Source: Tetracentron sinense (taxonomy: Eukaryota; Streptophyta; Magnoliopsida; Trochodendrales; Trochodendraceae). From it: a DNA stretch of 64,000 nt. The first letter of the stretch is position 1; the number at the start of each line of letters is the position of its first letter. Both the position numbers and the translations under genes were made by a program. Where the stretch lies: assembly GCA_015143295.1 (NCBI GenBank), contig CM026564.1, positions 16,356,416 to 16,420,415 on the forward strand, given 5' to 3'. Positions 8,361 through 53,207 of the stretch are shown in pieces. The notes beneath the pieces were generated by a model that searched no databases, was not told the DNA's origin, and saw only the letters and a list, made by a program, of their open reading frames with translations.

Positions 8361-9430
8361 GTCAAGCACACGATGATTTCAAGAGTTTTTCTGACTTTGA
8401 TGCGATGCAAGTATGAAATATAAACTGTCTACTTTCCTGTCAATTATATGAACTGCTTCCTGCTTTATTTCCATTATTATATTGATATGATTGTTGGTTA
8501 ATATTTGGTACCTGCTGAGTATTCCATGCTCAGTCGTACTTTTGACGTCGACAGGTTTTTTTTTTTGAAAGGTAAGCTGGGGTTAGGCGTCTCCCACCGG
8601 ATATATAAAAGAAAAAGGATTACAATCTAAGATAATTATAACTCGCTCTGTCCTTTTCCAAAATGGACAGGAGATCAGGGGGAAATTCCCTTGGCAAAAA
8701 AACAATAGAACTATTTATATTACAAAATTTAGCTAGAAAGTCATCTCCAGAATTACTTTCCTGCCAAATATGGCGAATAGAATGCGCGGAAAAGCTGAAT
8801 AATTTTCTAATACATCTCGAAACTAGATTCGCCAAGTACCAAGGAGGATCACTAGAGACCTACAAAAGTAGAGTGGCGTGCAACGAATCTGAATCAATGT
8901 AGAGGCGTTGAATGCCTTGAGTCAGGGCTAGATCAATACCTCTTTCTATAGCCAAAATTTTAAGGTTTAGGACATCTGTTCCCTCCACTCCTTCTGCATA
9001 AGCCAGAAGAGGCTGACCGTTGCAATCTCTAAGAATGCCTCCGAATCCCGCTGCACCATTTCTGATTGAGCGCCCGCTCCTTTTGACATGTGCTCCTGGC
9101 CCATGGGTGGAGGAGGAGTATGTTGAGGAACCTGTGGAGGAGCCTCATGTAGATGGTTACTATTAGGTGGTAGATTTTAGGTGAGTGTGGGTGTGTAGGA
9201 GAGATTTAGACCCATGTATTTTGGCGGGCATGTCCGCACCTTTATTTTATTTTTCTCTTTTGTACAAACTTGGATCATGTATATACATAGTTTATGCTTC
9301 CGCTATTTTTGCCCTCTATTGTATATGTTCAGCTTGTTTTGGAGGATGGTTTGTCAAGCATGTCATCTAGGTCATGACAAGCCCGTCCAAGATTCACTCT
9401 AACTCCTAGGGTGGGTTTCGGATTGCGACA
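8361..9430 (+). mobile_element. L1: 3' part of a gypsy-type LTR, split by LINE-B2
   Basis: The bases at 8361-8555 and 9073-9430 match the last 600 bases of solo LTR L4 (21486-22091): the GCTGAG...CTCAGT hairpin near 8515-8535, the short acidic frame near 9075-9175, TTCCGCTAT, and the terminal CTAACTCCTAGGG...GCGACA. The 5' part is missing at the junction with LINE-D1. Fossil LTR; no internal genes adjoin it. Confidence 0.8.
8556..9072 (-). mobile_element. LINE-B2, 5'-truncated copy (~515 bp)
   Basis: Minus-strand insertion with its tail as a T run at 8556-8566, the 3' hairpin at 8581-8598 and the C-terminal RNase H coding end at 8620-8835 (HIWQESNSGDDFLAKFC...YNYLRL). The upstream RNase H part (GGILRDCNGQPLLA on the minus strand) reaches to about 9072, where the LTR resumes. 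It matches LINE-B3 and B4. It is a short dead-on-arrival copy inside LTR L1. Confidence 0.85.
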
Positions 9431-10661: not shown

Positions 10662-10924
10662 ACATTGGGAGCCCTAGGGACTCAAAACACGCGAGATCAC
10701 GCATGTAGAACTCCGAATCTTCGTTTTACTAAGTAGTGAATAGTGTTTAATGTGCTTTTGTACACTTGGGGGTTTTATACTAATGGAAGTGTTTGGATTT
10801 ATGGTGTCCATGATTTGATAGGTCTACATGTCCTTAAGGAGTGTGTTTAAAGCCTGAAATGTGTTGGAAATGGGATTGGAGAAGATCCAAGTAGTGAAAA
10901 TAGGGTTTTGCAGCAAAACAGGGG

Positions 10925-11210
10925 TCACCGATCACTCGGTGATAACCACCGATTGACCGGTCTCACACCGATCGCTCGATGATAACATCCGATCGACCGG
11001 TCTCAAATCGAGTCACACCGATCGCATGGTGATAACCTCCGATGGACTGGTCTTCGACCGATTGATCGGTAGCTGTCGACTGGTTAACTAATTTGTATGG
11101 GGAAAAATTCTAGAGGGTGTTTTATACCGATTGCTCGGTTGAAACCACCAATCGATCGATCAGCCACCGATCGCTCGATTTGTACCACCAATCGATCAGT
11201 TATACGTTAT
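10925..11210. repeat. Quasi-palindrome cluster in L3
   Basis: About nine near-copies of ACCGATCGCTCGGT / ACCGATCGACCGGT, spaced by 5 to 20 bases (GATAACC, CTCAC), ending about 50 bases upstream of the TATA box. A spacer with CGACTGGTTAACTAATTTG recurs in the other LTRs. Confidence 0.85.
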
Positions 11211-11255
11211 TTCTTCATTAAGAGTTTTTAAGTCTTTAGCTACTACCCCTTTGCC

Positions 11256-11263
11256 TATATAAG
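11256..11263 (+). promoter_or_regulatory. TATA box of LTR L3
   Basis: TATATAAG within GCCTATATAAGGCTTG; the same box lies at equivalent places in L5 (23142) and L6 (25734). Marks the U3 promoter. Confidence 0.7.
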
Positions 11264-12083
11264 GCTTGTTCGTGCCTTATTCAGAAACCCTTAATACACT
11301 ATTTTGAGAGGGTTTTGAGAGGAAGAAGAAGGAAAGAAGCTAGGTGTTGCTCAAGATTGAAGGGAGATCAAGTTTTTTCCCTTCTTTTGGTATTTCTCAA
11401 CAAAGAACTCAAGGTTTTCAAGTGTTCCAAGCTTTTGGAATCAAAATTATTGATTTCACCAAGGTAGACACGCTATTATCAATCTTGTGATACTACTAGT
11501 TACCCCATAATGTTCTTCTTATTCTATACTATATATCTCTTGATTGTTATGGTGTGAAAGGTTGTTTTTATACTTGGATGTAAGTTATCACTATGATGCA
11601 CTCTAAGTGTTTTATTTAATACCTCTAAGGGTTTTTGGGTGTTTAAACATGTTGTTACTCTCATATGTTCATATGCTCGCATGTCTTGCATGAACCGAGG
11701 TTTTTCCTTGATACCAACTCACAAGAACTCTATGATAATGTCTTAGATCGTCTCACAAGCTCAAAAGCATCATAAATGAAATTGCTCTAAGATCTCTATG
11801 GTATTGGCTCTATGGTACTGCTCTATGTCTCAAAAGAATCATAAACGACTCTAAGGAACTCTATGAACTCTAAGAACTCATAAGGCTATGATTATCACAT
11901 GACTCACACGGTTTTGGTTTCGGATTTCATCATACGTACTATTCACGGTTTCCACGCTTTGATATCTTTTTAGGATTTCATTCTCCATGATTCGTATGCT
12001 CTATGCAATTATTGATTTATTGTTAGTAGCTTGTATACGCTGAGTATTCCACGCTCAGCCGATATTTGTTATCATCGGTAGGT

Positions 12084-12215
12084 ACTCGGGTTCCATTCGA
12101 CTTATGTGGTATGGAGCCTTGGGTAGAGGAAGAGTACTTCGACCCGGAGCCTTCTATGGACCACTATCAGGATGATGGCCCGCTAGATAGGCATCACAAC
12201 TTTGACTTCTGTTGA
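12084..12215 (+). other. Short acidic reading frame in L3 (LTR mini-ORF)
   Basis: A 43-codon frame directly after an AG|GT acceptor-like site, with PFDLCGMEPWVEEEY, then an acidic stretch and a C-terminal FDFC before the stop. Related frames sit at the same place in L4, L6, L7, L8, L10 and L11. It has no clear ATG at its start, so if translated it would be joined to an upstream exon. No function is known to me. Confidence 0.55.
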
Positions 12216-12529
12216 TGGACTTAGATAGACTTGATATTTTGTTAAGTGAGAGTGGGACTTGTCCACTCCGCATTTTGGATCCTTATACATGAGTATAATT
12301 TGTTGGTTCAGACTTGGACGAGTAATAGGAGTGTTCAATTATATTTTGGCTTCCGCTATGTTAGTTATATTTTGCTTCCGCTATACATTGTAAATCGTTT
12401 CCGCTATGAATGTCTGTGTACTCTGACAGGTTTCTATGCATGCCTTATGTATCATATTAGAGGTATGATATGGCGGTCACGAGTCAAAGTATCCCTAACT
12501 CCTAGGGGGTATTTTGGGCCGCGTCAGAC

Positions 12530-12542
12530 TTAGTATCAGAGC
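12530..12542 (+). other. Primer binding site, tRNA-Met type
   Basis: TTAGTATCAGAGC begins three bases after the 5' LTR and matches the usual TGGTATCAGAGC complement of initiator tRNA-Met used by Ty3/gypsy elements. Confidence 0.8.
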
Positions 12543-12924: not shown

Positions 12925-13915
12925 ATGAGACACGACAATCGAGGTCGTGGTTACCGTACTCGAAGATCTGAGGGTAAGGTTCTTAGAGGGGAGGAGCCGC
13001 TCTACTTCACGAATGCTATGGATTCCATAGCAGAGACCTTGGCTATGTTGGCAACTAGACCTGCTGTGAATACTCCTACCCCACAGACTACTCCTGTGCC
13101 TCCACTGGTGTATCACACCGCAAGACTTAAAGCTTTCCGGAGACTACGGCCTCCTACTTTCTATGGTACTCTGGACCCAATGGTGGCAGAAGCTTGGATT
13201 ATGCAGCTGGAGAAGACCTTTTGGACTCTCCGATGTACTGAGGAGTAATGGGTTGAATGGGTTTCCTCCGAGATGGAAGGTGATGCCGAGGATTGCTGGA
13301 GAGCTGTCCAAAGGCAAAGAGATGTTGCAAAGGCAGGGGAACCCTGGACATGGGCGGAGTTCCTAGAAACTTTCCGTGAGTAGTATTTTCCCAGATTCAT
13401 TCGAGAACAGAAGGTGAGAGAGTTTATGCTTTTGGAATAGAGAATGATGAACGTGGCCGAGTATGAGGCTAAGTTCATCGAGTTGTCGAGATTTGCTCTG
13501 CATTTGGTTGCGACTGAAGACCTGCGGGTCAGAAATTTTGAAATGGGGTTGAAGGCGTTCATTCGGGATAGTGGCAGAAGAGTTCAACAGGATAAGATAT
13601 AGTGGCTTCCGGAGAAGCATGTCTTGGGGTTAATCTAGTGGTTCTTCACAGTACGAGAAGTGGACCAGGACTGTACCATACCAGTTCTCTCGACTGATGT
13701 CGGCTCAAAGGTCTCCTTTCGTGCCTCAGGCACCGTGTCCTACGACGTCACAGGCTATGAGGGTTACGCCTCCGACTTCCTCCGCATCGCAGGCTTTTGA
13801 GGAGTGCTCCGCATGTGGCCGTCAGCACAAGACTGGGGATTGCCGAAGATTGTCAGGTGGATGCTTCCACTATGGCGAGGTTGGTCACGTGATATGGGAC
13901 TGCCCACGCAAGTAG
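12925..13915 (+). pseudogene. gag region of the gypsy element
   Basis: The frame starting MRHDNRGRGYRTRRSEG is followed by a retrotransposon gag domain (FYGTLDPMVAEAWIMQLEKTF, typical near its start) and ends with CCHC-type knuckles (CFHYGEVGHVIWDC near 13860-13910). It would form the particle shell. It is a broken fossil, recognised from its motifs only. Confidence 0.8.
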
Positions 13916-14229
13916 TCACAGACTGGGCCACAGGGAGTCCGACCTCCAGGCAAGCAGACTTCGCTTCAGGGGTCTTCATCTCAGGCCTCTAGATCCTTGC
14001 CGCTCACCTAGCAGCCTCGTCAGGCTAATCAGGGCAGGGTATTCGCCATGACTGACAGAGACGCACAAACATCTGATGATGTTGTGCAAGATATGCGCGA
14101 GTTTAATATTGTTAAAGTTCTAGAATTGCCATGATGTGTTGTATATATATATATGCTATGTAATGCTTATTGTTATGCGTGTGTCAATATGTATTAGGCA
14201 TGTAGCAAATTATAACTTGGGTAGTTATA

Positions 14230-15885
14230 ATTCTCAGGATCGTTGCTCGTGAATGAGTGTTTAGCAAGGGTGTTGATCAACACGGGATCCACTCATTCAT
14301 TCATCTCGCCTAGTTTTGCCGAAGGCTTTACGTCCGAGCCGAATAAGCTACCTCAGGAGTTGTCCATTTCGACTCCATTGGGCAATTCTATTGAGACAAA
14401 TAAAGTGTATCTGGGCAGTGTTGTACAAGTCATGCAGCACAAGTTGCCAATTGACCTGATCATTTTGGGATTTCAGGATTGGGATTTCGACGTCATCCTA
14501 GGTATGGATTGGCTGTCAGCTCACCATGGGCACGTGGCATGTTTCGAGAAGGTGGTGAACTTTAAACCTGCTAGGTTGAAGCCATTTCATTTCAGGGGAC
14601 TTCAGAAGAGAGACATCTTTGCAGCTCTCATCTCCAGAATGTGGAAGTACGAGATTCTACTTCCATTCCGGTGGTATGTGAGTATATGAATGTTTCTTCG
14701 GATACCATACCGGGATTACCTCCTAATCGGGCAATCGAGTTTGCGATTGATTTGGCTTCAGGCACGTCACCGATTTCTAAGGCTCTGTATAGGATGGCCC
14801 CTATTGAGCTTAAGGAATTAAATGATCAGTTGGCAGAATTACAAGGCCTTGATTTCATTTGGCCAAGTGTCTCACCTTGGGGAGCTCCAGTGCTCTTCGT
14901 GAAGAAGAAAGATGGGTCGATGCGAATGTGCATTGACTATAAACAATTGAACAAAGTCATGATCAAGAATCGTTATCCATTGCCTCGGATAGACGACTTG
15001 TTTGATCGGTTGAAATGTGCAATGTTCTTCTCAAAGATTGACCTTCGATCTGGTTATCATCAGTTGAAGATCAAAAAAGAAGACATTCTGAAGACGGCAT
15101 TCAGAACTTGATACGATCACTACAAGTTTTTGGTGATGTCTTTAGTCTAACTAACGTGCTGGCTGCATTCATGGATTTGATGAACCGGGTGTTCAGATCG
15201 TCTCTCGAGCAGTGTATGATCGTATTTGTAGATGATATCCTTATGTATTCACAGTCACAGGATGATCACACGAGAGATCTCTGCCTTGTATGACAGACTC
15301 TTTGAGAGCATAGTCTGTATGCTAAGTTGAGCAAGTACGAGTTTTGGCTTGACAAAGTGTCTTTCCTTGGACATGTGGTGTCGCCGAAGGTATCTCAGTT
15401 GATCCTACAATGATTGAGGCAGTAATGAACTGGGAGAGGCCGAAGAGTGTTACCGAGATTCGTAGTTTTCTCGGCCTGGCAGGATACTATAGGAGGTTCG
15501 TGGAGGGATTTTCAAGCTTGGCAGCTCCGTTTACCTATCTCACGCGAAAGAACACTAAGTTCACTTAGAGTGACAAGTGCGAGGCAAGTTTCTTGGAGTT
15601 GAAGAAGAAGCTTACTACTGCCCCTGTTCTTACAGTTTCGTCTGGAAGTGGTGGTTTCGAAGTCTATAGTGATGCTTCACTAGTCGGACTTGGATGTGTT
15701 CTTATGCAGCATAAGCAGGTCCCGCCTATGCTTCCCGTCAGTTGAAGGAACATGAGTAGAACTACCCCACACGCGACTTAGAGCTTGCAACAGTCGTCTT
15801 TGCACTGAAAATTTGGCATCATTACCTCTACAGGAGGTTCGTGGTATTCACGGACCACAAGAGCTTGAAGTATCTCTTCTTCTTT
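14230..15885 (+). pseudogene. pol region, part 1: protease, RT, start of RNase H
   Basis: Protease-like stretch near 14260-14600 (TGSTHSFISPSFA, ILGMDWLSAHH), then RT from about 14690 ([52 protein letters not shown], the FVDDIL catalytic box near 15221) and the first half of RNase H up to the LINE-B3 insertion. Broken fossil. Confidence 0.85.
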
Positions 15886-19876: not shown

Positions 19877-20135
19877 TGTAGAACCCCGGAACTTTTTGTA
19901 TATGCCTTGGAATATGTGTCAAGGCATGATGCCTTGTAATCTCCAATTTCATGAAATGAGAATTGGAAACTTTGAGAATTGCTTCAAGAATGCTATAATT
20001 AGTTAAATAAATTATTGAATAATGTCTATGAGCCTTAAAAGGTCCTAATCATGTTTAGAAAGGTCAAAAGGACAGTAGGATAAGTCTAAGTAGTAGGAAT
20101 GGGTGAAAAATGGACTCATTGTAGAAATTTGCAGA

Positions 20136-20330
20136 GCACCAATCGCTCGGTCCGTTATTAGCAATCGATCGGTCCACAACCGCTCGATTGCTAGCTATCG
20201 ACTGGTACACTTTTTTGTATGGGAAAAAATTCCAGAGAGCATGTTTATGACCGATCACTCGGTCAAGAATACTAGTCGCTCGGTAGGCGACCGATCACTC
20301 GGCATTAACCATCGATCGATAGCTATATCG
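20136..20330. repeat. Quasi-palindrome cluster in L4
   Basis: About six variants of ACCGATCGCTCGGT, several decayed, flanking the conserved spacer with CGACTGGTACAC and GTATGGGAAAAAATTCC. Confidence 0.75.
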
Positions 20331-21156
20331 CGTTTTACAGAAATTTCATTAAGGGTTTTTTTGTCATTTGTGCATTTCACTCTTACCTATTAAGGCTTGC
20401 CTAAGCCATTGAGGGTTCACTCGGTATTAGGCATCAAATTAAGAGAAAGAGAGAGAGGAGAAAGGGGATTTCTAACCTAGGGCATCCTCTTGAAGCAAAT
20501 CAAGAATTTTGAGAACCCAAGATCGTTCCAAAGGCTTGGATTCTTCAATCCAAGGTTCAAGCAAGAGAGGAACACGTCTCCAAGCTTGGCAGCAACCTCA
20601 CGCACGCACCAAAGGAATTTCTTCATTTCTTCAAGGTCGGTACCTTACGCTACCCTCCTAGTCCATATTCTTCTTTACTTCCTTCTCTTTTATGATGTTT
20701 CTCTACTATCTAAGTGTGTAAATGCTATGGAATGAATGAATGGAGGATGATTGACGGTGGATGCCGTGTGGATGTGTTGTGATGAATGAATTAGAAGGGT
20801 ATTGTACCAATAATGAATACACATGTATGTTGTAATCATAAACCCGACTAGAAAAGCATGGTATAGGCTTAAACCAATAATGTACATACCACATGTTTGA
20901 TGAAATGCCAAGATGAAGAAAATGAGTTATAAACCAAGAGAGTTATGATTTAAAGTGTATGAAATTGCTAGGGTTTATGATAGTGTGTTTAATTTTTTTT
21001 TTTGGCATGAATAATTACTTGTTGAAATAAATGTTATGCTATATGTTGTTGAAATCCCAATTGTCATATTTAATTCCAAGTGAAAGTATGTACACGATTC
21101 CACCAGCACGGCATGCATGACATGGTTTACTGGTTTTTTTCAAGAATAAAGTGTTA

Positions 21157-21190
21157 GAGGTAGGACATATCTTACGATATGTTTTGCCTC
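21157..21190 (+). other. Conserved LTR hairpin, ACATATC stem
   Basis: GAGG, then ACATATC-TTAC-GATATGT, then CCTC: a seven-base perfect stem with a four-base loop and an outer four-base stem. Counterparts lie at 27393-27425, 35541-35572 and 42909-42942. Confidence 0.65.
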
Positions 21191-21253
21191 GCTTTTGACA
21201 AGGACAAGAATAAGCATTGCACATAAGGGAGTTTAGACTTCCCTCCCATCTCA

Positions 21254-21360
21254 TTGAAAGAAGGGTCTCCCTTCACTCACAAGTGCATATCATTGAAAAA
21301 AGGGTCTCCCTTCCCTCTCAAGTGCATGTCATTGAAAGAGGGGTCTCCCCTCCCTCCTAA
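21254..21360 (+). repeat. ~45-bp repeat with covarying hairpins in L4
   Basis: Three units, each with a stem around TCT: GAAGGGTCTCCCTTC, AAAGGGTCTCCCTTC and GAGGGGTCTCCCCTC, separated by AAGTGCAT(C/G/A)TCA. The third unit changes both arms together. Confidence 0.75.
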
Positions 21361-21679
21361 GTGCATCTCACAAGTTACATGAGCATGTTTAAATTCCAAG
21401 CAAGCACGCATGACATGACACGCATAACAGACAAACAAGACAGACATAACAAGTTTTCCAAGCACGAAAAAGAGTATTTTAAGTCAAGTCAAGTGCACGA
21501 TGTTTCAAGAGTTTTATCGGCTTTTATGTGATGCAAGCATGAATATAAACTGTGTTACCTTCCTGTTATTATATGGATTGTTTCCTGCTTTATATATCGT
21601 CATTGTTATGTTGTGACTGTTGGTTAACGTTTGGTACCCGCTGAGTATTCCATGCTCAACCGTACTTCTCATGTCAGCA

Positions 21680-21775
21680 GGTGATAGCGAAGCGACGGCT
21701 CCTTTTGATATCTGTGCTCCTGGCCCATGGGTGGTAGAGGAGTATGTTGAAGAACCTACGGAGGAGCCTCAATAG
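21680..21775 (+). other. Short acidic reading frame in L4 (LTR mini-ORF)
   Basis: A 31-codon frame after a GCAG|GT acceptor-like site: APFDICAPGPWVVEEYVEEP, then acidic residues to TAG. It closely matches L10 (APFDVCAPGPWVEEEYVEEP) and more distantly L3 and L6. Confidence 0.55.
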
Positions 21776-22091
21776 ACGAGTACTACTAGGTGGTAGATTC
21801 TGAGTGACTATGGGTGAGCTTGAGACAGTATATTTATGTATTTTGGCTAGCATGTCCACACTTTCTTTTGTGATTTCATTTTGTACAAAACTTGGATTAC
21901 ATGTATATATACATACTTAGAGGTATGGTTAGACTTCCGTTGTGCTATATAGGTTATGCTTCCGCTATTTTTGTCCTCTATTGTATCTAGTCCAGGTATT
22001 TTGCAGGTTGGTTTGTCAAGCAAGTCATATAAGTCATGATAAGTCATACAAGATTCATTCTAACTCCTAAGGTGAGTTTTGGGTTGCGACA

Positions 22092-22590
22092 CAAAGAGCG
22101 ATTGAAAATTGCTCAGGATAGGCAGAAGAGCTATGCGGACACTCACCGAATGGATTTAGAATTCAAAGTTGGGGATCGGGTCTTTGTGAAGATTTTGCCG
22201 AGCCAGGGAATCAGGAGGTTCAGAAAGAATGGGAAACTCAGCCCTAGGTACGTGGGGCCATTTGAGATCATCACTAGAATTGGTGAGGTTGCTTACAGGG
22301 TAGCCCTACCGCCTCACATGGCAGCGGTCCATAATGTATTTCATGTTTCCATGCTTAAGAAATACATTCCGGATCTTTCACACGTCATTGCTCTTGATCC
22401 TATGGAGATTCGAGAGGATCTCACTTTGGTAGAACAACTAGTTCAGATCTTCGATCGTCGAGAACAAGTCTTGCACACCAAGACTGTCTTGTTAGTCCTT
22501 GTGAGATGACAGCATCATTCCAAGGAAGAGGCTACATGGGAGCGAGAGGCCGAAGTGAAGGAAAAGTACCCTCACTTGTTTGTATAGTTT
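22092..22590 (+). pseudogene. pol region, part 3: integrase tail with chromodomain-like end
   Basis: The longest intact stretch of this element. KERLKIAQDRQKSYADTHRMDLEF is followed by KLSPRYVGPFEI, VAYRVALPPHM, VHNVFHVSMLKKYIPD and DRREQVLHTKT, then an EEATWEREAEVKEKYPHLF end. This C-terminal layout is that of Tekay/Del chromoviruses, where it guides integration into heterochromatin. Broken fossil. Confidence 0.84.
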
Positions 22591-22662
22591 CTATGTTGGA
22601 TTTTCTGTATTTCGTTTTTGTTGTGCTTTTTGGTGTCGTTCTAATTTACAGGAGAGTCTTGT

Positions 22663-22675
22663 AAGGAGGGAGGGA
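22663..22675 (+). other. Polypurine tract
   Basis: AAGGAGGGAGGGA immediately precedes the TGTAAAACCCC start of the 3' LTR; primes plus-strand DNA synthesis in this family. Confidence 0.8.
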
Positions 22676-23526: not shown

Positions 23527-23694
23527 TTAGCTTCTTAGTTTGTTAGTCTGTTGTTAGCTTGATTACCATTCTCTTTCTTTCTTTCTCTTTACCCTATTCT
23601 GTATTGATTTGCATCTACTTGTACTTAGTTTACATCTCTGTAAACTGCTAGGTTTCTTCTTTTTCATATATATCTTCTGATTTACTGATCAACA
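23527..23694 (+). mobile_element. Copia-like LTR end, 5' truncated
   Basis: Matches the last 165 bases of the LTR at 32651-32897 and ends with the same TGATTTACTGATCAACA. It joins L5 directly on the left and the satellite on the right. Confidence 0.65.
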
Positions 23695-24804
23695 AAAAAA
23701 TAAACGTCGTTGCCCAAATCGAGCAAACGAGGTATATATTGAATGAATATAATTCTAAAAATTATGATAGATTGAAACAAAATGCTTTTGAGCAAACCGC
23801 TTCGAAAAATCATTCCCTATTGAGATTCAAAGCGCAATTCTATGCTACTTTTTTTAGTAGTTTGAAACTTAGGCAACTTCTTAACCTCGTAGCCAAATCG
23901 GGCAGACGAGGTCTAAACTGAACAAAAACATTTCTAGAAGTGAGGATACGTTAAAACAAATGCGTCGGAGTAGACCGCGCAGAAAAAGGAGTTGGTTGGG
24001 ATTCTGTCTGCTGCTCTAGGTTACTTTTTATGGAGTCTGAAACTCAGGTGACTTATGAACCTCGTTGGCCTAAATTGAACGAAGCCAATTCTAAAAATTA
24101 TGATAAATTGAAACAAATGCGTTGGAGCACACCTCGTTGAAAAAGGAGTCCTGTTAGGATTCTGTGTGTAGCTCTAGCTTACTTTTTTTTTAGTATTTTC
24201 AAACTTGGCCAACTTATTAACCTCGTTGCTTAAATCGGGTAAACTTGGTCTAAATTGAACGAAACCAATTCTAAAAATTAAGATAGATTGAAACACATTT
24301 GCTTTGGAGTGGATCCCATTGAAAAAGGAATCTCTATCTGGATTCTGTGTGCAACTCTAGGTTTACTTTTTTTAGTAGGTTAAAACGTTACTTATGAACC
24401 TCGTTGCCGAAATCGAGCAAACGAAGCCAAAACTAAACAAAACTAATTATATTAACATAGTCTATAAAATATTTTAGAGCAGATAACGTCGTAAAAGGAG
24501 TTCTTATTGGGATTCTATGCGCAACTCTAGGTTACATTTTTAATACTTTGAAACTTAGCCAACTTATGAACCTTGTTGCTTAAATCGGGCGAATGATGAC
24601 TAAACTGAATAAATCCAATTCTAAAAGTTTGGATAGATTGATCTAATGCGACATAGTAGACCGTGTTAAAAAAGGAGTCCCTGTTAGGATTCTGTGCAGA
24701 GCGTTAGGTTACTTTTTTAGTAGTTTGAAACTTAAGCAACTTATGAACCTCATTGTCCAAATCGAGGATACATGGACTGAATTGAGGGAAACTAATTCTA
24801 AAAG
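23695..24804. repeat. ~170-bp satellite, block 1 (about six monomers)
   Basis: The anchor GAAACTTAGGCAACTTATGA followed by ACCTCGTTGCCCAAATCG recurs near 23862, 24038, 24205, 24380, 24548 and 24724, giving monomers of 168 to 176 bases. Each monomer also has CCAATTCTAAAAATTA, GATAGATTGAAACAAATGC and AAAAAGGAGTCCCTGTTGGG. Monomers differ by about 10-20%. No coding potential. The block ends at AAAGTTA where LINE-F1 begins. Confidence 0.9.
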
Positions 24805-25269
24805 TTAGTGGCCTCCATGGAGTGTGCTTTAGGAAAGGAATCACCAGGGTAGCTTCGTCCTTAGATCCTTTCACTAAGTTTAAGTTGGGAAATGAGGTCG
24901 ACATCTAGTTTTGGAATGATGTCTGGTGTGGTCCGTCGAACTTAGAGACGATTTCGATTCCATCCTTCTCTTGGCCACTAGTAGAGGAGCCTCCATAGCT
25001 AAGAGTGTTGAGAGGTTGGGAAATGATTCAGTATGGTGTCCTAGACTTAGCTTAGGGATGGTAGGGTTTGGTCCTGAAGCATCTGTGGTCGATTTTCAAT
25101 TCGATCACTGTTACAGTCCTTGATCCTTACCTTTGCGCTCATTTCCTCATAATTGCTGTCTGGGCTAACCATGTTCACTCTAATGTATCTTTCTTCCTTC
25201 GGTTCGTTGCATTAGATAAAATTCTTACTTTGGATCATTGGAAGAGGCGAGGATGGAACTTAGCAAATT
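24805..25269 (+). pseudogene. LINE-F1 ORF2 remnant, piece 1
   Basis: Decayed RT-connection region of another LINE family: GITRVASSLDPFTKFKLGNEV, FWNDVWCG, and KILTLDHWKRRGWNLANCC leading into the zinc-binding motif. Several stops and shifts. LTR L6 interrupts it here; the motif continues at 29204. Confidence 0.72.
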
Positions 25270-26601: not shown

Positions 26602-28717
26602 TGTCGCGACCCAAAACCTACCCTAGGAGTTAGAGTGAATCTTGAACGACTTGCCATGACCTACGTGACATGCTCGACAAACCATCCTGCAAAATACATG
26701 GAGTATATACGATAGAGGACAATAATAGCGGAAACATACCCTACATAGCACAACGGAAGTCTAACAAAACCTCTATGTATATACATGTAATCCAAGTTTG
26801 TACAAAATGAAGTCAACAAAAGAAGGTGCGGTCATACCCGCCAAAATATATGAATATACTCTCTCAAGCTGACCCACAGATCACTCAGAATCTACCACCT
26901 AGTAGTACTCATCTACATGAGGCTCCTCCGTAGGTTCCTCAACATACTCCTCCTACACCCAAGGGCCAGGAGCACAGCTATGAAATGGAGCAGTTGCTCC
27001 CTCAGTACCTATCGACATAAACGTACGGCTGAGCATAGAATACTCAACGTGTACCAATTGCTAACCAACAGTCACAACATAGCAATAATAATATATAAAG
27101 CAGGAAGCAATTCATATCGTGACAGGAAAGTAAAACAGTTTATATTCATGCTTGCATCACATAAAAAGCCGATAAATCTCCTGAAATCATCATGCGTGTC
27201 ATATCATGCGTGTCATGCGTGCTTGCTTGGAATTTAAACATGCTTATGTAACTTATGAGATGCACTTGGGAGGGAAGGGAGATCCTTCTTTCAATGATAT
27301 GCACTTGTGAGTGAAGGGAGACCCCTCATGAAAGAGAAAGAAGTGTAAACTCCCTCCTATGCAATGTTTGTTCTTGTCCTCTTGTCAAAAGCGAGGTAAA
27401 ACATATTGTAAGATATGTCCCACCTCTAAACCTTATTCTTGAGAACGCCGGTAACCCATGTCATGCATGCCGTGCTCGTGGGATCGTGTACACGCTTTCA
27501 TTTGGAATTAAAATATGACATTCGGGATTTCAACAATACATAGAATATCATAATTTAAACAAGTATTCATGCCATTTAAAGAAAGCAATTAATCACACTA
27601 TCATAAACCCTAGCAATTTCATACGCTTTTAAACATGCATTCCTTGATTTACAGCTCATTTTCTTCACCTTGGCATTTCATCAAACATGTGGTATGTACA
27701 CTATTTGTTAAGGCCTACACCATGCTTTTCTAGGTAGGTTTATATTCACAACATACATGTGCATTTATTATTAGTACAATATCCTTCCCTTCCCATTCCT
27801 TTCATCACAACACATTCACATGGCGTCCATTTGCCCAACACCCATCTCCATCCATGCATCCCAACTCATAGCATAGTTATAGTTTAGGGAAAACAAAGAA
27901 ATAAGGAAAGAAAAGAGGAAACCATAACTAGGAGGGTATCAAAAGGTACCGACCTTGAAGAAGCGAGAAAAAACCCTCCAAAACGTGCGTGGAGTCGCTG
28001 CCCTATCTTGGAGAACGTGCTCCTCACGAGCTTGTACCTCGGATTGAAGAATCCAAGCCTTGAGGTGTGATCTAGGATCTTTAAACCCTTGATTTGCTTC
28101 AAGAGGGTGCCCTTGGTTAGAATTCCCTTTTTTTTTCCTCTCTCCCTTTCTCTCAAATAACCTAAGTATGGTGAATGAGACCCCCAAGACTCGGGCAAGC
28201 CTTAATAGGTAAGGGTGTAATGCCCAAATGACGAAACAATCCTTAATGAAATTCTGCAAAACGCAATAGACCGATCGATCGATGGTAAATACTGAGCAAT
28301 TGGTCGCCTATCGAGCGACCAGTGTTTTGACTGATCGACTGGTCAAAAACAAGCTCTCTGGAATTTTTTCTCATACAAAAAAGTACACTAGTCAATAGCT
28401 ACCGATCGATCGGTTATAGACCGATCGATTGCTACATGGATCGAGCGATCGGTGCTCTGCAAATTTCTACACTGAATCCATTTGTCACCCATTCCTACTA
28501 CTTGGACTTATCCTACTTCCCTTTTGACCTTTTCTAAACATGACTAGGACTCTTTCAAGGCTATAGTTCATTATTAAATATTTTATTTAATTATTTTATA
28601 ACACCATTGCACCTTTTCTCAAATGCTCCAAATTCTCATTTTATGAAAAAGGATATTACAAGGACGTCATGCCTTGCATACATTCCAAGACATATGCAAA
28701 AGTTTCGGGGCTCTACA
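26602..28717 (-). mobile_element. L7: solo LTR nested in L6 (2.1 kb, TSD GTATA)
   Basis: Minus-strand LTR with ends TGTCGCGACCC and GGGGCTCTACA, flanked by GTATA at 26597-26601 and 28718-28722. On its own strand it has quasi-palindromes (28268-28456), the ACATATC hairpin (27393-27425), GAAGGG hairpin repeats (27270-27330), the GCTGAG-type hairpin (27028-27048) and the acidic frame region (26915-27011). Same subfamily as L4; the exact TSD suggests it is younger than L6. Confidence 0.92.
28268..28456. repeat. Quasi-palindrome cluster in L7
   Basis: About six copies such as ACCGATCGATCGATGG and TACCGATCGATCGGT in the same relative place as in L4. Confidence 0.78.
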
Positions 28718-28765: not shown

Positions 28766-28900
28766 GGTGCCGAGGTTCCTTTCGATTTGTGCGGTACGGA
28801 ACCTTGGGTAGAAGAAGAGTATCACGATCCAGAGCCTTCCGTGGACCACTACCAGGACGATGGTTCGTTAGATAAGTGTCATGACTTTGACTTTTGTTGA
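28766..28900 (+). other. Short acidic reading frame in L6 (LTR mini-ORF)
   Basis: After CGGCAG|GT: VPFDLCGTEPWVEEEY, DPEPS, DHYQDDG, ending FDFC and TGA. Compared with L3, most base changes fall in third codon positions. Orthologous in place to the frames in the other LTRs. Confidence 0.58.
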
Positions 28901-31925: not shown

Positions 31926-32586
31926 TCAGTTTTGCGAATCACTCTAAGTATCAGGTTTGTTATGGCTCAATGTATATGGTTAGTGAAATGCTCAATGTTA
32001 TGTGCCTTGTAAAGAAATGCTTACAATGCTCACATGCTATCTGTTTTATGAATTGCTCTAAGTTATAAGCTAGTTCCGCTTTGCTTTTGCCTGATTCGCT
32101 CTGATAAATGCAGATGCTATCATTGATGTTTATAGTAATGCTAGTTAGTATTTTGTATACGTTGAGTATTCCATGCTCAGCCGAACTGTTACTTCGGCAA
32201 GTTTTGTGGATGCACATACTCCTGAGCCTTGGGTAGAGGAGTACTATGAGCTAGAGCCTGCCATGGATTAGCACCAGGATGATGGTGCTCTAGATAGGAG
32301 GCCCTATCTAGACTATTGTTGAGTGATGTGAGGGAGAGGGTTGTGTATTTTGAAAGTGGGGAATGTCCACTTTAGAATTTAAATTTTGTATAAACTACTG
32401 GTTTGGACTTGGAATACAAATCGCAGGTTTATGTTATAAAGAAATTTTCAGTTTCGCTTTTTAGTATGCCTTGTTAGCTCTTGCAGGATGGTATATATGC
32501 CTTATGTGTCATGACAAGATGGTATGACACAGCGGTCACGTGCCTAAAGTATCCCTAACTCCAAGGGGGTATTTTTGGTCGCGACA

Positions 32587-32650: not shown

Positions 32651-32897
32651 TGTTGAATGGAATTCTATAATTCAGCAGGGTTAGAAAAGTGAAGGATACC
32701 CTACCACTATGAGGAGATACTATAGCTGCTTGTTAGCTTGTTAGTTTGTTAGTCTGATGTTGGCTTGATTACCATTCTCTTTCTTTCTTTCTCTTTGCCC
32801 TATTCTGTATTGATTTACATCTACTTGTACTTAAACATCTTTGTAAATTTCTAGGTTTCTTCTTTCTAATATATATCTTCTGATTTACTGATCAACA
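32651..32897 (+). mobile_element. Small copia-like solo LTR (247 bp)
   Basis: Begins TGTTGAATGG and ends CTGATCAACA, a perfect TGTTGA/TCAACA inverted pair typical of short Ty1/copia or TRIM LTRs. No target duplication is visible. The same end plus the same satellite junction occurs at 23527-23720. Confidence 0.65.
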
Positions 32898-34231
32898 AAA
32901 AATAAACGTCGTTGCCCAAATCTAGCAAACGAGGTATATATTGAACGAATATAATTCTAAAAATTAGGATAGATTGAAACAAATACTTTGGAGCAAACCG
33001 CTTCAAAAAATGATTCCCTATTGAGATTCTATGCGCAATGCTAGGCTACTTTTTTAGTAGTTTGAAACTTAGGCAACTTCTTAACCTCGTTGCCAAATCG
33101 GGCAGACGAGGTCTAAACTGAACAAAAACATTTCTAGAAGTGAGGATACGTTAATACAAATGCGTCGGAGTAGACTATTCAAAAAAAGGAGTCGGTTGGG
33201 ATTCTATCTGCAGCTCTAGGTTACTTTTTATGGAGTCTAAAACTTAGGTGACTTATGAACCTCATTGAAAAAGGAGTCCTGTTGGGATTTTATGTGTAGC
33301 TCTAGCTTACTTTTTTTAGTATTTTCAAACTTGGCCAACTTATTAACCTCGTTGCTTAAATTAGGTAAATTTGGTCTAAACTGAACGAAACCAATTCCAA
33401 AAATGAAGATAGATTGAAACAATTGCTTTGGAGTAGATCCTGTTGAAAAAGGAATCTCTATTTGGATTCTGTGCACAACTCTAGGTTTACTTTTTTACGC
33501 TACTTACGAACCTCGTTGCCTAAATCGGGCAAACGAGTTTCAAACTGATTGAAACCAATTCTAAAAGTTATGATAGATTGAAACAAATGTTTTGGAGTAG
33601 ACCGTGTCAACAAAGGAGTCCCTATTGGGATTTTGTGCATAGCTCTAATTTACTTTTTTTAGTAGTTTGAAACTTAAGCAACTTCTTAACCTCATTGCCG
33701 AAATCGGGCAGACGAGGTCAAAACTGAACAAAACCAATTCTAGAAGTTATGATAGATTGAAACAAATGCGTCGGAGTGACATATACGCCCCCAGTATAAC
33801 TAAAGGGATTGTGAATCCATATACGTGTCCACTATCTTGTCAAAAAGAGAAAAACTTTGTGATGGACACCACCAAACCCGAAATGTTTGTCAAACTGGCA
33901 AGAGTGGGACATCTATGGCCCAATGAGCCTACAAACTGTAAAATCCTCTTGGTTATACATATGGGTCGGAGCAGATCATGCTGAAAAAGGAGTCCCAATT
34001 GGGATTTTTTCCGCAGCTATAGGTTACTTTTTAGTACTTTGAAAGTTACACAACTTATGACCCTAGTTGCTAAATCGGGCAAACGAGGTCAAAATTGAAC
34101 GAAACTAATTCAATTAGCATTGTTTGTAACAAATGTTTTAGAGCAAATCACGTCATAATAGGAGTCCCTGTTGGGATTTTGTGCGCAACTCTAGGTTACA
34201 TTTTTAATAGTTTGTAACTTAGTCAACTTAT
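32898..34231. repeat. ~170-bp satellite, block 2a
   Basis: Monomers with anchors near 33063, 33238, 33328, 33495, 33666, 34041 and 34212. One monomer has lost about 80 bases, and one carries a foreign piece at about 33778-33968 (ATGTTTGTCAAACTGG, GGCCCAATGAGCCTAC) that recurs at 46363-46470. The last five bases CTTAT are the target duplication of L9; the block continues at 46264. Confidence 0.9.
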
Positions 34232-34931
34232 TGTCATGCCCCAAAATACCCCCTAGGAGTTAGGATACTTTGGCGACGTGACTTAACCTTAATCAATCCT
34301 ACAAAGAGTATACAAGGCATGCCAAATAGTGATCCGAAAATTTTCTTTAACATAAATGTAATTCCAAGTGTCAACGTAAAACAATGACTGGATAAAATAA
34401 AATAATCACAAGGGTGCATATGCTTGAGTCTTCCACTCAAGCTCACATGAAAAATCCAAAGAAAGGAAATCCCAAAATATATTTCTCTCTCTCTCTCATC
34501 CCAACCCATGGCCATAGGCCAACCCTAACATCTGGCTAACCATCCGAATAACCTCCTACTCTCCTTGAGCTGCCTCAGTCCAAGGGACCAAAGTCCATAT
34601 GTTGTATAGTGTACCTGCAGACATAAAAGTATGACTGAGTATAGAATACTCAGCGAGTACAAGCTACTAACTGACAAGAGTAGTAATATTAATATGTAAT
34701 ACAAGATACAGTTCATCCAAAAGATACATAATCAGAGTGCAAAAGCTAAAACAACATAACAACGTAAAGTAAATCATGAACATCATATTTTAACTTACGT
34801 ATTGTAAATTCGTATTCAAAAGTAATGACTTATTCTTGAAAATACTTTTTGTGGTTTCCAAAACTTGCTTGTTGTATTTACAACTTATTCTTGTATCGTG
34901 GGAATCATACATGCCTTGTTTTGTTCTTATT

Positions 34932-42249: not shown

Positions 42250-42357
42250 CTAATAACCCTCTACGGGAGGTTCCTCCAAAGGCTCCTCAACGTACTCCTC
42301 TTCCACCCATGGACCAGGAGCACAAACATCAAATGGAGCAGCTGCTCCCTCAGAACC
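42250..42357 (-). other. Short acidic reading frame in L10 (LTR mini-ORF)
   Basis: A 35-codon frame after CGGCAG|GT: EGAAAPFDVCAPGPWVEEEY, then VEEPLEEPPVEG and TAG. Compared with L4 the frame keeps its sequence while many third positions differ (for example GATGTTTGT against GATATCTGT). Confidence 0.58.
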
Positions 42358-43836
42358 TGCCGACATAAGAAGTACGGCTGAGCATGGAATACTCAGCGGG
42401 TACTAAGCACTAACCAACAGTCATAGCATACAGATAGCATATATAAAGCAGGAAACAATTCAAGCATATAAAGCAGGAATAATTCATATCATGACAATAA
42501 AGTAAAGGAGTATATAATCATGCTTGAATTCATAAAAACCGATAAAACCCTTGAAAACACCGTGCACTTGACTTGACTGAAAATACCATTTCCTTGCTTG
42601 AAAACTTGTCATGTTTGTCTTATCTTATCGTATCATGCGTGTCATGTGTGTCATGCCATGTCATGCTTGCTTGGGAAAGTAAACTACTTGTGAGGGAAGG
42701 GAGACCCTTCTTCCTAAATGCCCATGCTTGTCATGCCGTGCCATGTCATGCTTGGAACAGTAAACTACTTGTGAGGGAAGGGAGACCCTTCTTCCTAAAT
42801 GCTCATGTCATGTCCTTTCACTTGTGAGATGTCCTTGTGAGATGTACTTGCGAGGGAAGGGGAAACCTTCTTATGATAATGCATGATTGACTTGTCCTTG
42901 CCAAGAGCGAGGTAAAACATATCGTAGGATATGTCCCACCTCTAACCATGTTCTTGAAAACCTCGATAATTCATGTAATGCATGTCGTGCTCGTGAGAAA
43001 CGTGTACATGCTTGCATTTAAATTTAAAGATGACATTTGGGTAATTTCACAACACATGTAGCATCAAAGATTGAGCAATGTAATATTCATATCCTTTAGG
43101 GAAAGCAAGAAACACACTATCATAGGCCCTAGTAATATTCAGAATTTATTAGGCATGCCTTTACAAATTTTCAGCTCACTTTATTCACCTTGGCATTTCA
43201 TCAAACAGGGTGTGTTCATTATGGATTTACCCTACAACATGCTTTTCTAGATGGGTTTTACTCAAATCGTACATGTATGTTCATTATTGGAACAATGCCC
43301 TTCCCCATTTGTTCATCACACACAACCATTGGCATCCAATCGCCCATTCCATCTCCATTCACCATTCACCATTTACCATTTACCATTCTCCATTCACCAT
43401 TCATCCATCTCATAGCACATGTATCAATGAAAGAAAAATCAAAAGAAATAGAGGGAGAAGAGGAACTATAACTAGGAGGGTAGTAAAAAGTACCAACCTT
43501 GAAGAAATGAGGAAGAAACCCCTTTCCAAAACGACTGTGTAGCTGCTGCCCTAGTTTGAGGAGATGCTCCTCACGAGTTTGTGCCTTGATCTTGAAGAAA
43601 AATGGGCTGGAGGTTGATCTAGGGTTTCAAAACCCTTTGATTTCTCTCCAAAATGGAAACCCTAGGTTGGAATCGCCTTCTCCCCTTTCTCCTATTCTCT
43701 CAAACTCTCTAAGTGTCGAATGAAGCCCTAAAGGCTCGGGTTAAACTCTTAAGGTAAGAGTGAACTGACCAAAAGACCGTAATACCCTTACTGGGATTTC
43801 TGCAATGACGCGAGGACCGTGAATAGTGCTGAACAC

Positions 43837-44402
43837 ATTGTGCTGTGAATAGTGCCAACTCGTGGTGCTGTGAATAGTGCAACTCGTGGTGCCATGAATA
43901 GTGCAACTCGTGGTGCCATGAATAGTGCAACTCGTGGTGCTGTGAATAGTGCCAACTCGTGGTGCCATGAATAGTGCAACTCGTGGTGCCATGAATAGTG
44001 CCAACTCGTGGTGCCATGAATAGTGCAACTTGTGGTGCCATGAATAGTGCAACTCGTGGTGCTGTGAATAGTGCAACTCGTGGTGCCATGAATAGTGCCA
44101 ACTCGTGGTGCCATGAATAGTGCAACTCGTGGTGCTGTGAATAGTGCCAACTCGTGGTGCCATGAATAGTGCAACTCGTGGTGCCATGAATAGTGCAACT
44201 CGTGGTGCCATGAATAGTGCCAACTCGTGGTGCTGTGAATAGTGCAACTCGTGGTCCATGAATAGTGCAACTCGTGGTGCCATGAATAGTGCCAACTCGT
44301 GGTGCTGTGAATAGTGCAACTCGTGGTGCCATGAATAGTGCCAACTCGTGGTGCCATGAATAGTGCAACTCGTGGTGCTGTGAATAGTGCAACTCGTGGT
44401 GA
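43837..44402. repeat. 24-bp minisatellite in L10, 23 units
   Basis: AACTCGTGGTG alternates with CATGAATAGTGC or CTGTGAATAGTGC; 23 copies of AACTCGTGG can be counted, with unit lengths of 23 to 25. The unit is nearly 8 codons long and has no stops on the minus strand, so all three minus frames stay open without meaning. Confidence 0.95.
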
Positions 44403-44696
44403 GCTGCACAACGTGCCCGTGGTGAGTTGTACAACGGATGCACACAGTATACGTTATCAGAGTACGTTGTCTGTGCTACGATTTCCTACAGGTACAGACT
44501 GTTTTGGCCATATTTTTTGACTCGTTCATCCGATTGTGACGATTCAACTTGCGTTGTGTTCGTACTTCGAAAAGGAACATTTCTGACGTTTCGAAATTTC
44601 CAATTTCTTCCTTATTTATTAATTATACCTCTTAAAAAGGCAAAAATGACAACGAGAGTGTCATGTATTAACTGTGAAAAGGTCCGGGGTTCTACA

Positions 44697-45851: not shown

Positions 45852-46263
45852 CCGGCTTTCCTTTCCCCCAAAAAAAAAAAAAAAAGTGTTTTCACACTTT
45901 TTTCTCTTGTGTCCAATACCCTACTCACACCTCATAAATCCTTCTCCATAGGTTTTTAACCCACCTCAATGATAATTAAATTCACACCGACATGTGTGAG
46001 AGGCTCCGACCTCTTTTTGCCTCATGCACTAGCACTATTCACCAACAACTCATTTAAACAGTTAGGATATTTTATACCCTTGATTTTACCCACTTAGAGT
46101 ATCTTTACACTCTTTTTAAGACTCAAACTATGTACCTAAAACCCTCACTTGACTAATCATAATATCAAGAACATAATGGGAAGCCATAGGCCTTTACAGA
46201 CACACCATGTAAGGGCACTATTCACATGAACAGTGAACTCAATTTCTGGGGCTCTACACTTAT

Positions 46264-46542
46264 GAACCTTGTTGCTAAAATTGGCCGAACGATGACTAAA
46301 CTGAACAATTCCAATTCTGAAAGTTAGGATAGATTGAACTAATGCATTGTAGAGGACCGTGTCTTCTACCAGAAATGTTTGTCAAACTGGTAAGAGTGGG
46401 ACGTCTACGGCCCAATGAGCCTACAAACTGTAAAATCCTCTTGGTTAAAACATATGGGTCGGACCAGATCATGCCGAAAAAGGAGTCCCAATTGGGATTT
46501 TTTCCGTAGCAGGAGGTTACTTTTTTAGTGCTTTGAAAGTTA
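46264..46542. repeat. ~170-bp satellite, block 2b
   Basis: Continues block 2a after L9. It includes the second copy of the foreign piece (46363-46470: GAAATGTTTGTCAAACTGG). It ends at AAAGTTA (46536-46542), the target duplication of LINE-C1. Confidence 0.88.
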
Positions 46543-49900: not shown

Positions 49901-50489
49901 AAAGTTACACAACTTATGACCCTTGTTGCTAAAACGGTCAAACGAGGTCAAAACTGAACGAACTAATTCTATTAACATATTTTGTAACAAATGTTTCAGA
50001 GTAGATCACGTCATAACGGGAGTCCCTGTTGGGATTCTGTGTGCAACTCTAGGTTACATTTTTAATAGTTTGAAACTCAGCAAACTTATGAAACTTGCTG
50101 CTAAAATCAGGCGAAAGATGACTAAACTAAACGAATTCTATTCTGAAAGTTAGGATAGATTACTAATGCGTCGTAGAAGACTGTGTCAAAAAAGGAGTCC
50201 CGGTTAGAATGCTATGCAGAGCACTAGGTTACTTTTTGTGAACCGCGTTGTCCAAATTGGGGATACAAGGTTTAAATTGAGCAAAACTAATTATAGAAGT
50301 TAGGATAAGTTGAAACATATGCTTTCGAGTAGACCGCGTCTAGAAAAGACTCCCGGTTGGGATTCTTAGTGTAGTTCTAGGTTACTTTTTTTTATTAGTT
50401 TGAAACTTAGACAACTTATGAATGTCATTGCCCAAATCAGGCAAACGAGATTTAAACTGAACGAAACCAATTCTAAAAATTAGGAAAGA
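49901..50489. repeat. ~170-bp satellite, block 2c
   Basis: About 3.5 monomers with anchors near 49907, 50067, 50225 and 50398. It ends at AGGAAAGA where LINE-C2 begins. Confidence 0.87.
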
Positions 50490-51706: not shown

Positions 51707-51771
51707 CTTTCGTGTTTTTGCAGAATTTTTGTAAGGGTTTTTAGGTCTTTTGGCCCTCAACCCTTAGGGGC

Positions 51772-53102: not shown

Positions 53103-53207
53103 GGTTTAGGAGAAGAGCCGTGGACTAAGGAGGTGTATGCCGAAGAGAAAGAAGATGGTGAGCTTCCTGAGGGGGAGGCTAGGGATATTGATAGTCATCC
53201 CAATTGA
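53103..53207 (+). other. Short acidic reading frame in L11 (LTR mini-ORF)
   Basis: A 34-codon frame after CTTCAG|GT: GLGEEPWTKEVYAEEKED, then acidic residues to TGA. It keeps EPW-x3-VY and acidity, while the PFD-C part has gone. Same position after the hairpin as in the other LTRs. Confidence 0.5.

What the first reader, a model, noticed from the sequence alone, without database searches (positions are those of the whole stretch)
12084..12215. Conserved short acidic reading frame inside the LTRs
At the same place in diverged LTRs (L3 12084-12215, L4 21680-21775, L6 28766-28900, L8 32201-32322, L10 minus 42250-42357, L11 53103-53207; also L7 and L1) lies a 31-45 codon frame with PFD(I/V/L)C and (E/G)PWVEEEY motifs and an acidic tail. 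L4 and L10 differ by many third-position changes yet keep APFD-CAPGPWV. L3 and L6 do the same. LTRs normally carry no coding constraint here, so this may be an LTR-encoded micropeptide or the 3' exon of a spliced LTR transcript. I know of no described family that fits.
Basis: partly seen in the sequence, partly recalled or inferred. Interest (0 to 1): 0.85.

Follow-up and report, generated by a model that had tools for sequence, protein, structure and literature searches.

The report
Protein-coding exon inside retrotransposon LTRs
The repeated ends of a group of plant-type retrotransposons, normally thought to be purely regulatory, carry a short stretch that has evolved as protein-coding sequence right behind a splice site, so it is probably the last exon of a spliced element message, although a free micropeptide is not excluded.

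Summary
Nine LTR copies in this window carry the stretch; three are broken (L2, L5, L8). Substitutions show protein-level constraint: omega 0.29 over seven copies (p 7.5e-7); L3-L6 has 16 synonymous and 9 nonsynonymous codon changes against 3.6 and 13.7 expected. Family B alone is weaker (p 0.074). The conserved peptide begins right behind a 3' splice-site-like AG|GT (8 of 9 copies), in the same phase in 8 of 8 unsplit copies, downstream of a near-invariant palindrome; between palindrome and AG the frame is not kept, behind AG it is. No AUG is common to the copies: L6 and L11, both intact, have none in their LTR frame, while L4, L5, L9 and L10 have an ATG three codons before the AG. The LTR's own first exon lacks ATG in 5 of 6 copies. 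I favour a 3'-terminal coding exon used from the 3' LTR. The only internal region here offers two phase-1 donor positions, at the gag-protease border (its GT reads AT) and just after the gag AUG. No RNA data; the partner is inferred. Precedents: MMTV sag, BARE/EVD Gag-only splicing. My listings and passages showed no plant case.

The parts
12081..12215 (+). L3 coding frame (44 codons + TGA), family A; codon 1 split G|GT across the splice site
28766..28900 (+). L6 coding frame (44 codons + TGA), family A; no Met in it
32200..32322 (+). L8 frame, A-like, TAG at codon 24; acceptor AG reads AA
21680..21775 (+). L4 frame, family B (31 codons, tail frameshifted)
26899..27009 (-). L5 frame, family B, one in-frame TAG at codon 19
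42250..42357 (-). L10 frame, family B (35 codons)
53103..53207 (+). L11 frame, family C (34 codons, EEPWTKEVY); no Met in it
34556..34615 (-). L9 frame, short (19 codons, PWTEAAQGE)
9069..9150 (+). L2 remainder of the frame (end approximate), family B, separated from its acceptor (split codon at 8554) by a LINE; 2-nt deletion
12039..12059 (+). near-invariant palindrome GCTGAGTATTCCAYGCTCAGC upstream of the acceptor (L3; equivalent in all nine copies)
   Evidence: pairing in RNA not supported by covariation
12080..12082 (+). 3' splice site, AG|GT, exon would begin at 12082 (L3)
   Evidence: AG|GT in 8 of 9 copies
10703..12526 (+). L3 LTR (5' LTR of an element), containing the frame
11256..11264 (+). 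TATA box TATATAAGG in L3 LTR (L11: CTATAAATA at 51771)
11286..11463 (+). putative leader exon 1 of L3, no ATG; candidate donor CCAAG|GTAGAC at 11464 (rank 14 of 423)
   Evidence: start assumed at TATA+30
12534..12542 (+). PBS-like TATCAGAGC next to the L3 LTR
   Evidence: tRNA-Met assignment recalled
12925..12973 (+). gag N-terminus (MRHDNRGRGYRTRRSE) ending at candidate phase-1 donor GAGG|GTAAGG
   Evidence: rank 6 of 423 donors
14091..14237 (+). intron-like insert at the gag-protease border, phase 1, T-rich, five in-frame stops; donor position reads CAAG|AT, acceptor TTCTCAG|G
22092..22587 (+). integrase C-terminus and chromodomain-like end of pol (one in-frame TGA at 22507)
   Evidence: chromodomain resemblance recalled
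22663..22674 (+). purine tract before the (truncated) 3' LTR from about 22675

Best explanation
The stretch is a 3'-terminal protein-coding exon carried in the LTR of a group of Tekay/Del-like Ty3/gypsy elements. Shown: it evolves as protein; the conserved frame begins behind a conserved phase-1 acceptor-like AG|GT; the copies share no start codon. Inferred: in the 3' LTR of a full element an upstream donor in the internal region is spliced to this acceptor, the exon adds 19-44 residues, net acidic, and a stop, and the RNA is polyadenylated further on in the LTR. The likeliest partner is gag: either the donor position at the gag-protease border, where splicing to protease would give Gag-Pol and splicing to the LTR a Gag with an acidic tail, or the donor 49 nt after the gag AUG, which would give a small basic-acidic accessory protein. 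In the 5' LTR the same stretch would lie inside a leader intron and stay untranslated.
For: Purifying selection: omega 0.29, 2dlnL 24.5, p 7.5e-7 over seven copies; L3-L6 alone 0.20, p 4.8e-4; forward-shifted frames 1.3 and 2.6. Context-matched neutral simulation P 1e-4 for L3-L6 and L10-L4, 0.017 for L10-L5. Among stop-free 25-codon windows on both strands it has the highest synonymous fraction in family A (11 of 14; 447 windows) and shares the highest in family B (6 of 9, two other windows 4 of 6; 1490 pair-windows). Acceptor AG|GT in 8 of 9 copies. PW lies in the acceptor-defined frame in 8 of 8 unsplit copies although it stands 5, 9, 10, 12 or 15 codons behind it, whereas between palindrome and AG gaps of 0, 2 or 3 nt put the palindrome in two different frames (EYS in L3, L5, L6, L8, L9; PLSI-type in L2, L4, L10, L11). 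Exon 1 has 0 ATG in 5 of 6 LTRs (about 4 expected each), the next, intron-like part 22-66, two or more times the expectation; L3 and L6 have an in-phase TGA, L11 a TAA, shortly before the donor. From the acceptor to gag L3 has 26 ATG, a poor gag leader. Gag-protease insert: gag piece matches RVP_2 positions 3-25 (E 0.039, below cut-off), protease piece 24-133 (E 2e-27), the 147-nt insert between; more T-rich and lower in GC than all 251 windows compared; acceptor rank 7 of 468. Both donor positions are phase 1, as is the LTR exon.
Against: No RNA, ribosome or peptide data could be reached. Only one internal region lies in the window; it is decayed and its gag-protease donor position reads AT, so the partner rests on one copy and on phase (each match 1 in 3 by chance). 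The frame does not close at the AG: it stays stop-free for 15-21 codons further upstream in the eight copies where the LTR upstream is present, and in L4, L5, L9 and L10 this includes an ATG three codons before the AG, so translation without splicing is possible there. L11 has in-phase ATGs in exon 1, closed by stops. Splice scores used matrices recalled from memory; the acceptor of L3 is only rank 23 of 468, and the best acceptor of that element (22652) lies outside the LTR. Family B alone is not significant (p 0.074). On seeing I lowered this from 0.58 to 0.52.
Confidence: 0.52

Rival explanations
1. LTR micropeptide with its own AUG: either the frame is read without splicing from an AUG just upstream, or LTR exon 1 supplies the AUG and is spliced to this exon.
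For: Frame is selected as protein. ATG three codons before the AG in L4, L5, L9, L10, nine codons before in L5 and L8, at codon 11 in L3; L11 has two in-phase ATGs in exon 1.
Against: L6 has no ATG of its own LTR in frame and L11 none in the LTR exon or just upstream, yet both are intact, and the L3-L6 pair shows the strongest constraint. The ATGs shown lack a purine at -3. Exon 1 has no ATG in L3, L4, L5, L6, L10; in L11 both frames are stopped before the junction.
Confidence: 0.15
2. Non-coding constraint: the stretch is a purine-rich exonic splicing enhancer or other RNA/DNA signal next to the splice site and only looks coding.
For: It lies directly behind a conserved acceptor and palindrome and is rich in GAG/GAA.
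Against: Constraint is codon-specific: synonymous changes in excess, nonsynonymous ones rare, shifted frames omega above 1, length changes keep the frame. An enhancer does not predict this.
Confidence: 0.1
3. C-terminal exon of Pol or of an accessory product not related to Gag, spliced from a donor late in pol or from a second promoter.
For: Donor-like sites exist in pol (19867 and 22248 rank 3 and 4 of 423), and the top-ranked acceptor of the element lies just before the purine tract (22652).
Against: Pol in this element ends with its own stop about 87 nt before the LTR; nothing singles out a late donor.
Confidence: 0.16
4. Relic: the exon was coding in an ancestor (a captured host fragment or remnant of a Tekay 5' additional ORF) and is now decaying.
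For: Three of nine copies are broken; some Tekay elements are reported to carry 5' additional ORFs (PMC11728184, passages).
Against: Constraint is visible between two fairly similar copies (L3-L6, 15.6% apart over the LTR, omega 0.20); breaks are expected after insertion. No Pfam match for four copies.
Confidence: 0.07

Closest known systems
Mouse mammary tumour virus superantigen gene (sag) in the 3' LTR
   Different: Sag is a frame in a vertebrate retrovirus; here a short exon without a shared AUG in a plant-type Ty3/gypsy element. No sequence relation was tested.
BARE1 and EVD Gag-only spliced RNAs (plant Ty1/copia)
   Same: Splicing near the gag border makes a Gag-only message beside Gag-Pol (PMC3735527 and PMC8892269, passages).
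   Different: Copia elements; the Gag-only RNA ends by a frameshift stop (BARE1) or splicing-coupled early termination (EVD) in the internal region, not in an LTR exon.
Additional ORFs (aORFs) of plant Ty3/gypsy elements, including 5' aORFs of Tekay
   Same: Extra coding capacity of unknown function in related elements (PMC11728184, PMC7264820, passages).
   Different: In the passages seen they lie in the internal region, not inside the LTR; the sunflower Tekay 5' aORF protein is about 400 aa.
[quoted passage not shown]
   Same: A partly spliced intron in a plant Ty3/gypsy polyprotein (PMC6317226, passages).
   Different: Different position (here gag-protease) and lineage; no LTR exon mentioned there.

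Membership tests
Ty3/gypsy chromovirus, Tekay/Del clade (host element) | Protease, RT and integrase-end domains in Ty3/gypsy order | tested here: met
   RVP_2, RVT_1, then SH3_Tf2-1 on the L3 element; the integrase core was not searched
Ty3/gypsy chromovirus, Tekay/Del clade (host element) | Integrase C-terminal chromodomain | tested here: inconclusive
   Chromodomain-like end read by eye at about 22440-22587 with a stop inside; resemblance recalled; one search gave no chromodomain hit for the piece up to 22506 and the rest was not searched
Ty3/gypsy chromovirus, Tekay/Del clade (host element) | RT tree placement in Tekay | not tested
   No reference plant elements at hand; the clade name is recalled
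LTR-encoded spliced gene (sag-like organisation) | Coding sequence inside the LTR under protein-level selection | tested here: met
LTR-encoded spliced gene (sag-like organisation) | Splice acceptor immediately upstream of the frame | tested here: met
   AG|GT at one place in 8 of 9 copies, one phase in 8 of 8 unsplit copies; use in RNA not shown
LTR-encoded spliced gene (sag-like organisation) | Transcript joining an upstream exon to the LTR exon | not testable with these tools
   no RNA data
LTR micropeptide (own AUG) | In-frame start codon shared by intact copies | tested here: not met
   Present just upstream in L4, L5, L8, L9, L10 and at codon 11 in L3; absent in the intact L6 and L11
Gag-only subgenomic RNA strategy (BARE/EVD type) | Intron at the end of gag | tested here: inconclusive
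   147-nt T-rich insert interrupts the RVP_2 match in phase 1, but single copy with AT at the donor and a weak gag-side match

The most novel reading that the evidence does not exclude
A plant Ty3/gypsy lineage sorts its RNA by splicing: unspliced AUG-cluttered RNA for packaging, leader-spliced RNA for Gag-Pol, and a third message in which gag (or its first 16 codons) is joined to a selected exon housed in the 3' LTR, giving an LTR-encoded Gag tail or small accessory protein. Since solo LTRs carry promoter, acceptor and exon, many copies of a spliceable coding exon would be scattered through the host genome.
Probability: 0.27. Interest if true: 0.82.

Novelty: new variant of a known kind. Interest (0 to 1): 0.64.

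Why it matters
LTRs are usually annotated as non-coding. A selected terminal exon there would add a product to a common plant element group, would suggest how single-frame Ty3/gypsy elements could make Gag without Pol, and would mean that solo LTRs can donate a coding last exon to neighbouring host genes. It can be checked at once in plant genomes and long-read RNA.

Tried and rejected
Own genome: none held. Relatives: the 17-base palindrome core hit 10 viral contigs; the LTR profile gave only two short hits there (E 0.011) and 8 of 10 contigs share one similar, unrelated-looking stretch, so I took them as chance. The longer pattern gave 0 in viral contigs and 3 contigs of bacterial MAGs, not followed. 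Protease, integrase, RT and peptide-alignment scans of viral contigs gave no confirmed relative. The protease had no match among solved structures. So there are no copies from outside this window.

Considered and disfavoured: LTR exon 1 as source of the start codon; a second conserved coding frame elsewhere in the LTR (in family B two other windows tie in synonymous fraction on smaller counts; not followed); the LTR acceptor as the normal gag-leader acceptor (26 ATG from there to gag); an RNA hairpin with covariation (83.3% of cells paired against 82.4% in shuffles; fold z from -0.8 to -3.3 in six copies). A first codon fit with L8 misaligned by one column gave omega 0.34 and is superseded. 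Script slips: the L11 exon start is off by one and its acceptor score likewise; one search also prints a score for L8, which lacks AG there. Searches give the right L11 frame.

The draft also called the frame the sole top window in family B; it is a tie.

Rows left out: L2 is not counted in the PW-frame test and enters the codon model with 24 codons; L9 and L11 are not in the codon model (too diverged); Pfam was searched with four of the nine peptides. Structure prediction was not run.

Full report
What is there. The window is plant-type DNA (my judgement; no organism was given) with nested LTR elements, LINE-type frames and satellite-like repeats. One Ty3/gypsy element can be followed in pieces: LTR 10703-12526, a PBS-like TATCAGAGC at 12534, gag from an ATG at 12925, protease from 14238, RT, a LINE insertion, integrase, a nested LTR (L4) at 19877-22091, the integrase end with a chromodomain-like tail to 22587, a purine tract at 22663-22674 and a truncated 3' LTR from about 22675. 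Profile search gives nine LTR copies with the reported stretch, in groups A (L3, L6 and the more distant L8), B (L2, L4, L5, L10) and C-like (L9, L11).

The frame. Read from the last base of a shared AG, L3 gives 44 codons, L6 44, L10 35, L11 34, L4 31, L8 23, L9 19, L5 18 before a stop; in L5 and L8 the stop is an in-frame TAG within the otherwise alignable peptide, and L2 has a LINE and a 2-nt deletion. L3, L6, L10 and L4 share PFDxC and PWV(E/V)EEY, 12 invariant columns in an alignment of these four; L5 reads PFHSC; L8 keeps EPWVEE; L9 and L11 share only PWT and acidic residues. PW lies in the acceptor-defined frame in 8 of 8 unsplit copies, with 5, 9, 10, 12 or 15 codons before it, so length changes kept the frame.

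Is it selected as protein? (i) Codon-position counts: L3-L6 8/5/16 (p 0.013), L10-L4 5/5/10 (p 0.09), L10-L5 6/4/10 (p 0.09), L5-L4 4/5/7 (p 0.26); control windows elsewhere in the same LTR pair as extreme: 24 of 1415, 19 of 1584, 64 of 1525, 233 of 1847. (ii) Neutral simulation with trinucleotide-context rates learnt from the rest of the same LTR pair, which allows for methylation-driven change: L3-L6 16 synonymous and 9 nonsynonymous codons against 3.6 and 13.7 expected (P 1e-4), L10-L4 7 and 7 against 2.9 and 16.5 (P 1e-4), L10-L5 5 and 9 against 3.3 and 16.7 (P 0.017). (iii) Codon model on a hand-set tree: omega 0.29 (p 7.5e-7) for seven copies, 0.27 without L8, 0.20 for L3-L6, 0.21 for A, 0.49 (p 0.074) for B alone; forward-shifted frames 1.3 and 2.6, reverse frames 1.4, 0.41 (p 5.5e-4, 15 stops) and 2.7. 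(iv) Of stop-free 25-codon windows on both strands this frame has the highest synonymous fraction in A (11 of 14; 447 windows, many overlapping) and shares the highest in B (6 of 9; two others 4 of 6; 1490 pair-windows).

Where it starts. All nine copies share a near-invariant palindrome GCTGAGTATTCCAYGCTCAGC, then under 25 bases, then (C/T)AG|GT; only L8 has AA for AG. With a recalled plant matrix the acceptors of L6, L4, L10 and L9 score 3.7 to 8.0, those of L3 and L5 2.0 and 1.6; L3 is rank 23 of 468 AG sites of its element. The stop-free frame does not end at the AG: it runs on upstream for 15-21 codons in eight copies (in L6 into its nested neighbour). But gaps of 0, 2 or 3 nt between palindrome and AG place the palindrome in one frame in five copies and in another in four, so no common peptide is kept there. 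ATGs: three codons before the AG in L4, L5, L9, L10; nine before in L5 and L8; codon 11 in L3; none in L6's own LTR part or in L11. The palindrome is conserved as sequence; base-pair covariation is not above shuffles.

The rest of the LTR. A TATA box (TATATAAGG in L3 and L6, CTATAAATA in L11, degenerate in B) is followed by about 180-230 nt without ATG in 5 of 6 LTRs up to a shared AAG|GT, then by about 620-1140 nt with 22-66 ATG, two or more times the shuffled expectation. I read this as an AUG-free leader exon and an intron; the L3 donor ranks only 14 of 423. In phase with our frame, exon 1 has TGA in L3 and L6 four codons from the junction and no ATG in the five ATG-free copies; L11 has two in-phase ATGs, both stopped before the junction, the second by a TAA in the last codon. 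From the acceptor to gag L3 holds 26 ATG, so a gag message would do better to skip this exon. These facts push the coding use of the exon to the 3' LTR, without proving it.

Possible partners. In the only internal region, the RVP_2 match is interrupted: the gag piece 14012-14131 matches positions 3-25 (E 0.039, below Pfam's cut-off; a second weak hit, Bromo_TP, E 0.098, overlaps it), the protease frame positions 24-133 (E 2e-27). Between them 14091-14237 has five in-frame stops, 41% T and 30% GC, more extreme than all 251 windows compared, and ends in an acceptor ranked 7 of 468; its start reads CAAG|AT, so as it stands it lacks a GT donor. It splits a codon after its first base, as does the LTR acceptor. 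A second phase-1 donor, GAGG|GTAAGG, ranks 6 of 423 and lies 49 nt after the gag ATG. Either could join the LTR exon in frame; one decayed copy cannot decide.

Comparison. MMTV sag shows that a 3' LTR can hold a gene reached by a splice acceptor just upstream (PMC3026287, passages). BARE1 and EVD show that plant copia elements use splicing near the end of gag to make Gag alone (PMC3735527, PMC8892269, passages), and spliced isoforms with truncated Gag are reported in sunflower, where Tekay was absent from the expressed set (PMC7730604, passages), a warning that RNA evidence may be scarce. Additional ORFs of plant gypsy elements, also in Tekay, are described in the internal region (PMC7264820, PMC11728184, passages). 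None of the listings (titles and abstract starts, capped lists) and passages I saw describes a coding exon inside a plant LTR; subscription literature was not searched. Four of the peptides were tried against Pfam, without match.

Verdict. The terminal-exon reading is the best but not proven; a micropeptide with its own AUG remains possible in family B and L9. The upstream partner and the function of the acidic tail are inferred.

Noticed in passing
window 14091-14237: Intron-like T-rich insert at the gag-protease border of the one internal region, phase 1; possible Gag / Gag-Pol switch in a Ty3/gypsy element.
   Followed up: partly
window 11286-11463 and equivalents in L4, L5, L6, L10: LTR leader exon without any ATG followed by an ATG-rich intron-like stretch; sharp change at a shared AAG|GT. 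L11 has two in-phase ATGs in its leader exon, both followed by stops.
   Followed up: partly
window 22632-22652: Top-ranked splice-acceptor-like site of the element (TTCTAATTTACAG|G) lies just before the purine tract and 3' LTR.
   Followed up: no
window 10930-11190, 20120-20330, 51480-51710: U3 of LTR families A, B and C shares repeated short palindromes of the CGATCG / CTCGGT type and a conserved block before the TATA box.
   Followed up: no
window 23527-24808, 32733-34232, 46256-46552, 49901-51008: Satellite-like AT-rich repeats of about 170-180 bp, partly abutting truncated LTRs.
   Followed up: no
window 43770-44450: Array of about 24.5-bp tandem repeats that leaves several long overlapping frames on the minus strand, next to LTR L10; no Pfam match for the frame 43709-44485.
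   Followed up: no
window 8556-9069: A LINE-type insertion sits in LTR L2 right behind the conserved splice acceptor.
   Followed up: no
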